From positions 62,001 to 126,000 of the forward strand of contig LNEI01000016.1 in NCBI GenBank assembly GCA_001464455.1: a stretch of DNA of 64,000 nucleotides, in the 5' to 3' direction. The notes under the pieces were generated by a model. The model made no database searches, was not told the DNA's origin, and worked only from the letters and a program-made list of their open reading frames with translations. The position numbers were made by a program, and so were the translations under genes. Each line of letters begins with the position of its first letter. Within the stretch, counting starts at the first letter, position 1. Of this stretch, positions 10,791 through 41,117 are shown one piece after another. Source of the stretch: Acidobacteria bacterium Ga0077534 (lineage in GTDB: Bacteria; Acidobacteriota; Blastocatellia; Pyrinomonadales; Pyrinomonadaceae).

Positions 10791-11157
10791 CGGCATCGAC
10801 ATTGTAGAAGTTTATCGCATCCGCGACACGCTCGCCAGAACTCCGCGGTTTCGCGAACGGGTCTTTACGCCCGGCGAACAGGCATACTGCGATGCAAAAG
10901 GCGTCGCGGCCGATCAGTCGTACGCCGCAAGATTTGCTGCGAAAGAGGCCTTTTTGAAAGCCTTGAAAACCGGGTGGCGTGGGAAGATCACATGGCACGA
11001 CATAGAAGTCGTATCTGACCCGGACGGCGTTCCTGATCTAATTATCAGGGGCGAAGCTGCCGAGATATTGAAAAAACGCGGTGCCGACCGTGTCCACATT
11101 TCGATATCGCACACCGTCGACCATGCTGTTGCTCAGGTTCTGCTTGAAAAGTCTTAA
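10777..11157 (+). CDS. acpS: holo-[acyl-carrier-protein] synthase
   Basis: MIVSIGIDIVEVYRIRD; FAAKEAFLKAL; HISISHT. Confidence 0.95.
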   Translation: MIVSIGIDIVEVYRIRDTLARTPRFRERVFTPGEQAYCDAKGVAADQSYAARFAAKEAFLKALKTGWRGKITWHDIEVVSDPDGVPDLIIRGEAAEILKKRGADRVHISISHTVDHAVAQVLLEKS

Positions 11158-11204
11158 CTGCAAGCCAATTGCTTTTTTTTCAATTTAAAGGTTGATAGTT
11201 AAAG

Positions 11205-13097
11205 TTACTTTGTCGGCGTCGGAGACGCTGCGGGTTTCGGCTGCGGCTCGTCCAGCGACAAGAAAACAACGGCTCCGTCGTGGTCCGAGACGCGTTCGGG
11301 TCGAGTGCCGTCGTTGCTGAGGATCTTGGGAAAATCAGCATTTGATCTTGCGTAGCCGAACTTCAGAAGCCGCTCCCGCAAAGGCCGATTTATCAGAATG
11401 TGGTCGAGACTCTGAGCGAAGCCGTCAAAAGTGTACGAATAGCGTTTTGTGACGTCCGGCAGGAACTCGATGAGGTTAGCGAGACCGGTGTTGAAGCTAG
11501 TTTTCGACGGCGTCAGCACGTTTTGGTCCGATTTGCCTTTCAAGATGCCGATCAAGTCATTGAACCCATCGTTGAACTGAAAAGAGTTAAAATCACCGCA
11601 TAGGATGATGTTCTCAGTCGGAGCGGCCGCTTGGCGGTCGACGACGAATTTCGCAAGCCACTCAGCTTGCAGACGGCGTTTATTCTGAACACGATTGCCG
11701 TCTTTGGGATCATCGATCCCGCCGTAGGATTTAAAGTGATTAACGATAACCGTTACTGCTAGAGGCTTTTGAGATCGAGCATCGATCGCTTCCACTCGAA
11801 TGAGCAGCGGCGGACGATCGTAAAGATTCTGGTTTTCATCGCCTTTCACGTCGAGCTTAACGTCCTTGGCAAGCTGCTGAACCTCAATGACCTTGAGCTT
11901 CGTCGACTTTACGAGATAGCCGACGTCGATGCCGCGAGGGTCGTTACCCTCGATCAGGTGGGCCGTATATTTCGGGTCGGGCACGCCGGCTTTCACGTGA
12001 TCGGCATTTATCGCTTCGGCTAGTTTCTTAAGTCCGGCAAGATTCTCGGCCTCGACGACACCGATAAGATCGGGCGAGCTGAGTACGTTTCGAAACGTGA
12101 GCGACAGTTTCGCCAGCCGTCGTTGAAATACCTCTTTAGGAACGGTCGCCTCTCTATCTACATTAGAGGAATTGACCTCATCGTCAAAAAAATTCTCAAT
12201 GTTCAGCGTGCCGACGGTCAGTTCTCTTTCCCCGGCTGGGCTAAGCGGAGTGAACGCCTTAATATTCTCGATCTTTCGTTCGTACGACGCGTCGACGAGC
12301 AGGGTGTAAAACTTTCGCGAATAGTCGATGATGCCGACGACTTCCTTGAGCGTGGCTCCAGCCGGAACGTCGATCGGTTTGCCGCCCGACTGGGCAAGAC
12401 TGTCGACCCGCAGCGTTTCGGGGTTCATATCGAAAGCGGGCGTCGTCGGAGGCAGTTTGTCGACGATGATCTGCAAAACGCCGAGGCCTGGTTCCCGAAA
12501 TGGCCTTGGGGTTCCGGGCAGCGTCGCGAAGAAAACCCCATTCGATGTCGATAATCCGCTTCGCTCGTTGGTGAAGCCGCCAGTCGGGCCGACGACCGCG
12601 AGATCGGCCTTTACACGCATTCCTTCAAATCGCTCGAGCTGGTCGAGCTTGCCCTTCGGGTCGAGATCGCCGGCCGTCAGAGCGATCGGGGCGGGGAGCG
12701 GATTGTCTTTCGAAAGTACTTTGACCGTCGGGCGCGTTATCTCGGTGATCGGGATGAAGTACCGCTCACTCGGCGGGCGGAATTCGACGACAGTGCCATC
12801 GACCTGAACGAGGTTGCCGATCGCGACCTGGTTTACGCTGTTCGGACCGTAGACTAGAAGGCCTTCAGACGTTTTTGGATCGCTATCAGCCTTGTCGTCA
12901 GGCGTCTGTATAAAAAAGCCGTTCCGTAAGATCGCCGTAACGATCCCAGTCGTTCGAACATTCTCGTTAACAACTGGAGAAACACCTTTGTCGCCCTGGA
13001 TCTGGGCGATAGTGTATTCCTTCTGAGCGAAAACCGAGCTCGCCGAAAAAACTGCTATCAGAGAGAAAACGATAAAGCTGGAAATTCTGATCTTCAT
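11205..13097 (-). CDS. secreted endonuclease/exonuclease/phosphatase-family nuclease
   Basis: Signal peptide; TVGTLNIENFFDD; GVVEAENLAGL; IILCGDFNSF; SLDHILIN; VSDHDGAVV motifs. Confidence 0.88.
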   Translation of the reverse strand: MKIRISSFIVFSLIAVFSASSVFAQKEYTIAQIQGDKGVSPVVNENVRTTGIVTAILRNGFFIQTPDDKADSDPKTSEGLLVYGPNSVNQVAIGNLVQVDGTVVEFRPPSERYFIPITEITRPTVKVLSKDNPLPAPIALTAGDLDPKGKLDQLERFEGMRVKADLAVVGPTGGFTNERSGLSTSNGVFFATLPGTPRPFREPGLGVLQIIVDKLPPTTPAFDMNPETLRVDSLAQSGGKPIDVPAGATLKEVVGIIDYSRKFYTLLVDASYERKIENIKAFTPLSPAGERELTVGTLNIENFFDDEVNSSNVDREATVPKEVFQRRLAKLSLTFRNVLSSPDLIGVVEAENLAGLKKLAEAINADHVKAGVPDPKYTAHLIEGNDPRGIDVGYLVKSTKLKVIEVQQLAKDVKLDVKGDENQNLYDRPPLLIRVEAIDARSQKPLAVTVIVNHFKSYGGIDDPKDGNRVQNKRRLQAEWLAKFVVDRQAAAPTENIILCGDFNSFQFNDGFNDLIGILKGKSDQNVLTPSKTSFNTGLANLIEFLPDVTKRYSYTFDGFAQSLDHILINRPLRERLLKFGYARSNADFPKILSNDGTRPERVSDHDGAVVFLSLDEPQPKPAASPTPTK

Positions 13098-39276: not shown

Positions 39277-40641
39277 TTGTGCGGTTCCCCCGCCGTATCC
39301 CAAAAGTCGCCTGCTCCGAAGAGGAAATTCCCCATTTTGTCAGCCGTGTTTGCAGAGAACCAAGTGGAAGTACATTCCGACAATGATATCGCCGAGATGG
39401 TGTCGTCTCGCGGCGGAGCTTTGTCTGACGAGGTCCGGTCGGTCCAGGTCGAACTCGGCATCTGGCTCTCCGGCGTAGAGAGTTTTCTCGCTGCTGGCCA
39501 TCACTCTTTCCTTAGCCAAAAGGACATGCGAGCGGCGGCTGATTCTGCAAAAGAGTTTAGGCTTCTCAACTCTGTGCTCCAACGATGCACGATGTTGAAT
39601 GCCCGTCTTCTTGGGCTTTCGAACGAGCCTGGTAATTCCCTTGACCGCGACGAGCTCCGCGAACTCGCGTCTGCTCTTCGTGAATCGCTGCTGTTGTCCG
39701 AAGGGCTGATCGGCTCTAGTTCGCTCGGCTCGGGCGAGTGGAAAGCGTGGACCGGAATGCTTTCTGCCCGCTTTAGCTCAACGCCAGCCTTTCGCGAGCT
39801 GATCCTGATCGCCGAAGGCGCCGGCCGGTCAAACCTTCCGGGTATACTCAAAGATCTTACCCTAAATCGCGGCTTCCTCAGTCCTGAACAAGCCGAACTC
39901 GCTCTCGTATTGCCGCGATTCGGTGTCATCCTTCAATGGCTCAGCGTGGTCGGCAGAATGCTCGACGCGGATGAACCGCTCAAGCCGGCACTTGTCATCT
40001 TTTCGCGGGTCAACGAACAGATATTCGAGCTTACCAACTATATCAACAACCGGCTCGAGCGTTTTCCGAACGAAGAAGCGGAGCTTTTTGGTTCGCTTGA
40101 TGCCGCGTCGTATACCGCGTCGATCGAACTCAAGAAAGTCTACACGCAGGAACTCGCCGGTGTTGCCCAGATGCGGCCATCGCCGTCGATCTACGCTCGA
40201 ATGGAAACTGCTCATTCGCTTCTCAAAGAAGGATTTCAGCAGATCCTGGCTGGTTTTGCCCGCACGCTCGATCCCGACACCGACATCTTTGAGCTGTTTC
40301 CGACGTTTCATATCAAGCTTGAACAGTCGATCGCCCTCCGACGCGAACTCTGGGACGCTACCCGAGTCGTCCAGGCCGCCGAAGCGAAACCGGAAAAAGC
40401 CGAGATCGAGAAGATGCACGCCGAACTTCGCGGCTTCCTGAGCGGAACGGTCAAGTTTCTCTTTTACAAGGACACCGAAACGGTCGAGCGATTTGCCGAG
40501 GAGATATTTATCACCAAGCAAAACAAAGATCTCGTGCCGCTGCTTCATAGATTTGGTGCCTACCTCGAAACACTTTTTGGCCAGGTAAACCTGCGAGCCG
40601 TGCTCGAAAAATACCCTTTCGACCCGAACGGCGACATTTAG
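39277..40641 (+). CDS. hypothetical protein, long helical
   Basis: 454-aa ORF; no recognised family; start uncertain. Confidence 0.75.
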   Translation: MCGSPAVSQKSPAPKRKFPILSAVFAENQVEVHSDNDIAEMVSSRGGALSDEVRSVQVELGIWLSGVESFLAAGHHSFLSQKDMRAAADSAKEFRLLNSVLQRCTMLNARLLGLSNEPGNSLDRDELRELASALRESLLLSEGLIGSSSLGSGEWKAWTGMLSARFSSTPAFRELILIAEGAGRSNLPGILKDLTLNRGFLSPEQAELALVLPRFGVILQWLSVVGRMLDADEPLKPALVIFSRVNEQIFELTNYINNRLERFPNEEAELFGSLDAASYTASIELKKVYTQELAGVAQMRPSPSIYARMETAHSLLKEGFQQILAGFARTLDPDTDIFELFPTFHIKLEQSIALRRELWDATRVVQAAEAKPEKAEIEKMHAELRGFLSGTVKFLFYKDTETVERFAEEIFITKQNKDLVPLLHRFGAYLETLFGQVNLRAVLEKYPFDPNGDI

Positions 40642-40645
40642 CGAT

Positions 40646-40874
40646 CGTCTCGCATCCCTCCTGAAAGTGAGACGGGTTAACTGCTGTTATTACAGCTATT
40701 TACGTCGAAAAATCGTCTCACTTGCAAAAAAACACAACACCGTCTCGCCTGAGATGGCCTTATAAACCGTTCCACTTGCGTGCTGAAAGTGGAACGGGTA
40801 ACTTATTCTGTAACAACGAGATACGCAGAAAAATCGTTCCACTTGGCGATATACTAATAGGCGTAAGTGGAACG
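40646..40874. repeat. tandem intergenic array of alternating inverted 10-bp motifs, two diverged units with ~122-nt period
   Basis: Motifs at 40646, 40665(r), 40714, 40741, 40768, 40787(r), 40835, 40865(r); CGTYYCACTT / AAGTGRRACG. Confidence 0.85.
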
Positions 40875-41040
40875 TGTCCGCAACTGGAGCTTTCTCGATC
40901 TAGCCGCTTAATTTTCAAAGATCGTCACTGGAAGACGTGGCTTGCAGCATTCACGTACGGAGAAGTGTCGCACAGATGCAACAATTTGTCAAGTTGGGAA
41001 TGCAAATAACTTGCCGGTAAGATCTGATACCGGCGTGTTC

Positions 41041-41117
41041 GCATCTTGCGTCTTTGCGTGAAACGATAGCTTGCCTCACGTAGAGACGCTAAGGACACAA
41101 AGAAGACGCAAAGGAAG
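41041..41117. repeat. palindromic GCAAAG-type intergenic repeat copy
   Basis: gcatcttgcgtctttgcgtg ... acacaaagaagacgcaaagg. Confidence 0.65.

What the first reader, a model, noticed from the sequence alone, without database searches (positions are those of the whole stretch)
40646..40874. Tandem intergenic hairpin array with compensatory stem changes and mutually exclusive pairings
Starting about 5 nt after the stop of the 454-aa ORF, eight copies of a motif appear in alternating orientation. Unit 1 uses AAGTGAGACG/CGTCTCACTT and unit 2 uses AAGTGGAACG/CGTTCCACTT. The units are about 122 nt apart and share ctgaaagtgRRacggg(t)taac...tacg.(a)gaaaaatcgtYYcacttg. The two differing stem positions change on both arms (A-T to G-C, G-C to A-T), i.e. 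covariation. In unit 2 adjacent motifs (E-F, F-G, G-H) can each form a perfect 10-bp stem, so alternative folds compete. This suggests a structured RNA/switch or an array of protein-binding inverted repeats not explained by any annotated family.
Basis: partly seen in the sequence, partly recalled or inferred. Interest (0 to 1): 0.75.

Follow-up and report, generated by a model that had tools for sequence, protein, structure and literature searches.

The report
Dispersed helicase-linked palindromic repeat arrays
The hairpins are one of about 20 scattered copies of a repeat that recurs across one genus of Acidobacteriota, and they are most probably docking sites for a helicase-like protein whose gene carries the same repeat at its end, a pairing of scattered DNA repeats with a helicase that I could not find described.

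Summary
Six exact and two degenerate 10-nt arms form two 4-arm units, AAGTGAGACG and AAGTGGAACG. It is one of about 20 intergenic copies in this genome. A covariance model finds 4-38 units in 8 of 41 congeners and none in other genera of the class sample. It is not in Rfam, and it is not RAYT-linked: the genome's Y1 transposase genes carry other palindromes or none.

The same unit sits just after the stop codon of a single-copy gene for an AAA_25 (RecA/DnaB/gp4-fold) ATPase with a C-terminal resolvase-type HTH. That protein clade (support 100/99) is present in exactly the genomes with such units. Two predictions held. Paralogs followed by 9-bp GTTTCA iterons occur in exactly the four genomes rich in those iterons. 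G030's own word (ATTTGRRACA) is dispersed only in G030. In two sister proteins (90% identical) the recognition helix changed disproportionately, and every word of the adjacent array changed with it. Plasmids of Bacteroidota carry TGGGACA arrays at the end of a homologous gene.

So the 'covariation' is better read as concerted change of a protein-recognised word than as RNA pairing. Best reading: dispersed iteron-type binding arrays of an MGE-derived helicase-HTH protein. How they spread, and any host function, are unknown.

The parts
40646..40655 (-). unit 1 (GAG colour) arm 1, degenerate CGTCTCGCAT
   Evidence: register from alignment A1
40665..40674 (+). unit 1 arm 2, AAGTGAGACG
40675..40713 (+). 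unit 1 central segment GGTTAAC...TTACGTCGAAAAAT (conserved TAA / TTAC / AAAAAT, variable middle)
   Evidence: alignment A2; weak inner pairing
40714..40723 (-). unit 1 arm 3, CGTCTCACTT
40741..40757 (.). unit 1 degenerate, inverted fourth arm CGTCTCGCCTGAGATGG
   Evidence: the same inverted form in L050, L052, L062, L064
40768..40777 (-). unit 2 (GGA colour) arm 1, CGTTCCACTT
40787..40796 (+). unit 2 arm 2, AAGTGGAACG
40797..40834 (+). unit 2 central segment
   Evidence: alignment A2
40835..40844 (-). unit 2 arm 3, CGTTCCACTT
40865..40874 (+). unit 2 arm 4, AAGTGGAACG
39277..40641 (+). 454-aa ORF whose stop lies 4 nt upstream of the array; syntenic in congeners that lack the array

Best explanation
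The window feature is one of about 20 chromosomal copies of an iteron-like binding array for a cognate DNA-binding ATPase (AAA_25, RecA/DnaB/T7-gp4 fold, with a C-terminal resolvase-type HTH). Its gene lies elsewhere in the same genome (G000:C25:53590-54795) and is itself followed by one unit. SHOWN: the dispersed repeat family; the gene-adjacent unit; co-occurrence of the gene clade and the units; species-specific words; joint change of helix and words in one sister pair. INFERRED: the HTH binds the arm word (TG-RR-AC core), pairs of arms dock protein subunits or a hexamer, and this marks a site for helicase loading. The protein is related to a replication-module ATPase of mobilizable elements, so the dispersed arrays are most likely non-autonomous derivatives of that module's origin-like array, kept and spread with help of the single-copy ATPase, in a REPIN-RAYT-like relationship with a helicase in place of a transposase. 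The spreading step is the least certain.
For: (1) One unit directly follows the stop of orthologous genes in G000, G023, G020 and G061, and in G033, G008, G004, G030 and G006. (2) The orthologs form one clade, support 100/99, found in 9 of 41 congeners. Those 9 are exactly the genomes with such units: eight by covariance model and G030 by its own word. Nominal Fisher p about 3e-9. (3) A prediction from paralogs: GTTTCANNN arrays beside the AA-type genes are dispersed (38-49 matches) in G010, G019, G020 and G031 only; 0-4 in the other 37 genomes, reversed control 0. (4) G013 and G017b proteins are 90.3% identical, yet 5 of 11 recognition-helix residues differ against 37 of 423 elsewhere (P = 0.002), and all words of the adjacent array switch TGTCCC to TGTTCC. 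(5) Recognition-helix residues 383 and 381 rank 2nd and 4th of 328 columns for association with word colour. (6) In a plasmid of Bacteroides and one of Butyricimonas, a homolog (about 30% identity, HTH included) carries inverted TGTCCC/GGGACA arrays at its gene end: 6 and 17 GGGAC/GTCCC words against means of 0.4 and 0.7 elsewhere. (7) Fold: KaiC/gp4/DnaB/Rad51-like ATPase plus three-helix HTH.
Against: No binding, expression or mobility data. No clean insertion boundary or target-site duplication was found. Two colours per locus (three in G020) with only one clade member in most genomes is not explained. G004b, a clade member, has no adjacent unit in its downstream 330 nt. Some HTH paralogs (G035, G060, G033b, G116) have no array. 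Phylogeny inflates the helix-colour association. The ortholog cut was set after seeing the hits, though the clade is well supported.
Confidence: 0.72

Rival explanations
1. Same protein-site pairing, but the arrays are not mobile passengers. They serve a host or chromosomal function (for example replication restart, fork pausing or nucleoid organisation) and turn over by gain and loss.
For: Arms stay conserved while loops diverge among copies. No recent identical dispersed copies in the own genome; best other copy 77%. The gene is single copy.
Against: Patchy presence in 8-9 of 41 congeners, almost no shared positions between species, and species-specific words argue against a conserved housekeeping role.
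Confidence: 0.2
2. Structured RNA or switch: arms pair alternatively in a transcript and compensatory changes preserve the stem.
For: Strong two-sided changes in the stem, nested strong folds, slight excess of inner pairing, several copies just after a stop codon in the same orientation.
Against: Two-arm pairing does not require all four arms to share a colour (arm 1 29/30, arm 4 53/62). The same words occur as direct 9-bp repeats. Copies are as common between divergent genes (14 of 47) as in the background. The central segment folds only weakly (mean z -0.68). No Rfam match.
Confidence: 0.05
3. REP/REPIN-type element mobilised by a RAYT (Y1 transposase).
For: Palindromic, intergenic, dispersed; ten Y1_Tnp matches in the genome.
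Against: No Y1 gene is flanked by the units in the RAYT manner; most have their own, different palindromes. One Y1 gene (C12:90.5k) merely lies about 450 nt from a unit. No invariant unpaired GTAG or CGTC tag.
Confidence: 0.02
4. Transcription terminators or mRNA 3'-end hairpins multiplied at gene ends.
For: Position 5 nt after the stop codon in the window; several other copies within 25 nt of a stop; AAAAAT beside arm 3 (T-run on the other strand).
Against: Intergenic classes are tandem 23, divergent 14, convergent 10, close to background 50/16/11. Most congeners with the same gene order lack it.
Confidence: 0.01

Closest known systems
REPIN-RAYT systems (Bertels and Rainey, PMC3116915; Di Nocera, PMC3733652)
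   Same: Dispersed intergenic palindromic pairs; a single-copy protein gene flanked by its own repeat type; different paralogs with different repeat types; repeats and protein appear to co-evolve.
   Different: The partner is an AAA_25/RecA-fold ATPase with an HTH, not a Y1 HUH transposase. No GTAG tag. Arms share a word that also exists as direct iterons.
CGTC-tagged REPs (PMC3733652), which lack a known dedicated enzyme
   Same: Palindromic dispersed repeats without an associated transposase; some arms here begin CGTC or TGTC.
   Different: CGTC REPs have an unpaired CGTC tag, an 8-9 bp stem and a 4-5 nt loop. Here CGT belongs to the paired arm, spacers are 9, 39 and 20 nt, and GGA arms begin CGTT.
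Iteron origins with a replication initiator or helicase (plasmid Rep/RepA; RSF1010 RepA, PDB 1g8y)
   Same: Short repeats beside the gene of a DNA-binding replication protein; ATPase fold related to RepA, DnaB and gp4; homologs on plasmids of Bacteroidota.
   Different: Here the arrays are dispersed at 5 to about 40 chromosomal places, and helicase and site recognition are in one polypeptide. Replication activity is untested.
MITE / ERIC / BOX repeats
   Same: Short non-coding intergenic palindromic mosaics.
   Different: No terminal inverted repeat-transposase pair and no target-site duplication found.

Membership tests
REP/REPIN (RAYT-linked) | Repeat flanks a Y1 tyrosine transposase (RAYT) gene | tested here: not met
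   Ten Y1 matches; most flanked by other palindromes or none; units near only one at about 450 nt
REP/REPIN (RAYT-linked) | Unpaired GTAG tetranucleotide at one end of the stem | tested here: not met
   No GTAG in unit consensus; definition from PMC3733652
CGTC-REP | Unpaired CGTC tag, 8-9 bp stem, 4-5 nt loop | tested here: not met
   CGT(Y) lies inside the paired arm; spacers 9/39/20 nt; GGA arms CGTT, others TGTT or TGTC
MITE | TIRs of a transposase-bearing element and target-site duplication | tested here: inconclusive
   No transposase-bearing copy and no clear TSD seen; empty site in G034 but flanks too diverged for boundaries
Known structured RNA (Rfam 15) | Match above the family gathering score | tested here: not met
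   Only chance-level hits
Iteron array of a replication protein | Repeats adjacent to the gene of a DNA-binding replication protein | tested here: met
   Units or 9-bp repeats directly after AAA_25-HTH genes; that the protein acts in replication is inferred from fold and context
Iteron array of a replication protein | Protein binds the repeats and replication starts there | not testable with these tools
   Needs EMSA/footprinting and an origin assay; only the helix-word association is available

The most novel reading that the evidence does not exclude
A new class of genome-dispersed repeat system: a RecA/DnaB-fold helicase with a changeable HTH (four-colour word TG-RR-AC) and chromosome-wide iteron arrays that it copies or maintains by a replicative, transposase-free mechanism, with helix-word co-evolution producing mutually insulated colours in one genome.
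Probability: 0.3. Interest if true: 0.92.

Novelty: new variant of a known kind. Interest (0 to 1): 0.74.

Why it matters
REPs are attributed to a transposase, and the CGTC class has no known enzyme. Here is a repeat family whose probable partner is a helicase-HTH ATPase, with a testable recognition code (helix residues against two word positions). It offers a way to look for enzymes behind other orphan palindromic repeats: read the sequence next to HTH-bearing replication ATPases.

Tried and rejected
Rfam scan: nothing. RAYT link: rejected. GTDB pattern scan: only five loci, all in Acidobacteriota MAGs. Clean insertion ends: G034 and others lack the array, but flanks are too diverged. Terminator or positional bias: none beyond a handful of copies right after stops. 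attC-like reading (TAAC/GTTA) was considered by eye only; the R-box pattern does not fit. PADLOC: only weak partial hits. NCBIfam: no meaningful family. Literature searches found no description of such repeats; the library lacks most subscription papers. Viral contig search failed on the server side.

Full report
OBSERVATION. The array begins 4 nt after the 454-aa ORF (stop 40641). It has six exact AAGTGRRACG arms and two degenerate ones, in two units 121-122 nt apart. Each unit reads arm1(-), 9 nt, arm2(+), about 39 nt, arm3(-), about 20 nt, arm4(+). Arm 4 is sometimes inverted or lost. The AG and GA 'colours' are consistent within a unit.

FAMILY. The word occurs 105 times in the genome against 27 for the reversed control, in about 20 intergenic arrays, usually one GAG and one GGA unit in the same orientation and in either order. 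A covariance model (R1) finds 38 units here, 32 in G020, 26 in G033, 18 in G023, 16 in G006, 11 in G061, 4 each in G004 and G008, one weak hit in G032, and none in the other 32 congeners. In a sample of 162 genomes of the class, only this genus has any. A GTDB pattern scan hit only Acidobacteriota/Chloracidobacterium MAGs. Other species use shifted words: AAGTGAGACA, AAGTGGAACA, AAATGGGACA, and in G020 a third colour, GGGACG. Positions are hardly shared between species. The window's gene pair is syntenic in many congeners without the array.

NOT REP/RAYT. Ten Y1_Tnp matches exist in the genome. Most of these genes carry other palindromes close by, and none is flanked by these units on both sides. 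One lies about 450 nt from a unit. The GTAG/CGTC tag criteria of PMC3733652 are not met.

THE PARTNER. Comparing neighbours of the copies across species showed one gene next to a unit in four species. The unit follows its stop codon closely, and this holds for further orthologs. The product is an AAA_25 ATPase with a C-terminal resolvase-type HTH. A profile search of the PDB hits T7 gp4, RadA and RSF1010 RepA. The AlphaFold model (mean pLDDT 81.7) matches KaiC, Twinkle/gp4, DnaB and Rad51 folds. A tree puts the proteins from unit-bearing genomes in one clade, support 100/99. Clade presence (9 genomes) equals unit presence (8 by model, plus G030 by its own word).

TESTED PREDICTIONS. (a) Related proteins of other clades end in arrays of other words. 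If these pairs work alike, the GTTTCANNN iterons beside the AA-type genes should be dispersed in the same genomes. They are: G031 47, G010 38, G019 49, G020 45 matches, against 0-4 in 37 others and 0 for the control. (b) G030's gene-adjacent palindrome, ATTTGRRACA...TGTYYCAAAT, occurs at five places in G030 and nowhere else in the genus. (c) Sister proteins G013 and G017b are 90.3% identical; 5 of 11 recognition-helix residues differ against 37 of 423 elsewhere (P = 0.002), and all array words switch from TGTCCC to TGTTCC at the homologous place. (d) Across 17 proteins, helix residues 383 and 381 rank 2nd and 4th of 328 columns for association with colour. This is not corrected for relatedness, and the HTH as a whole is not above the rest.

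BEYOND THE PHYLUM. tblastn finds about 30% identical homologs, HTH included, on eight plasmids of Bacteroidota. In the two read in full they sit in a module with excisionase, integrase, a DUF6371 protein and a mobilization protein. The gene ends carry inverted TGTCCC/GGGACA arrays, 6 and 17 words in 370 nt against background means of 0.4 and 0.7. That the Acidobacteriota gene descends from such a module is inference.

MECHANISM. Shown: repeat family, gene link, co-occurrence, joint change. Inferred: the HTH binds the word. Then the stem 'compensation' follows because all arms carry the same word, and RNA pairing is not needed to explain it. Arm 1 agrees in colour with arm 2 in 29/30 units, arm 3 in 79/87 and arm 4 in 53/62. 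Only three colours occur (GA 38, AG 30, GG 18, one other). R-to-R changes also keep pairing, so single-strand hairpin recognition is not excluded. Why two or three colours stand side by side is unexplained: two binding modes, other paralogs, or avoidance of cross-pairing. How copies arise is unknown.

LIMITS. The genomes are mostly fragmented MAGs. Gene calls in the context analysis are by longest ORF. The ortholog threshold was set after the search, though the clade is well supported. No experiment was possible.

Noticed in passing
G000 Y1 transposase loci L055, L054, L067, L068, L077, L079: Several RAYT-like genes each have a different private palindrome (for example GCGGGCATCCTGCCCGC, GTAGGGTGGAACCCTAC), so the genome holds several REP families besides this one.
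   Followed up: partly
L286 (G000:C25, about 11000-12000): A 0.9-kb intergenic stretch with short arrays of all four colours (TGAAACG, TGGGACG, TGAGACG, TGGAACG), not next to an AAA_25-HTH gene.
   Followed up: partly
L153 (G020:C10, 41835-42331): About 400 bp containing another palindromic repeat is inserted inside a GGA unit, with a duplicated GAACACTTTAAG-like flank: a nested insertion.
   Followed up: no
L055 2100-3400 (G000:C12): A roughly 770-bp tandem duplication, each copy with one GGA unit, upstream of a Y1 transposase gene.
   Followed up: no
window 41040-41110: Inverted TTGCGTCTTTGCGT / ACAAAGAAGACGCAAAG repeat in the same intergenic region; similar words appear in the G034 empty site.
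   Followed up: no
L327, L328: Plasmids of Bacteroidota with an integrase-excisionase-AAA ATPase-DUF6371-mobilization module have uncharacterised TGGGACA arrays at the ATPase gene end, a possible origin.
   Followed up: partly
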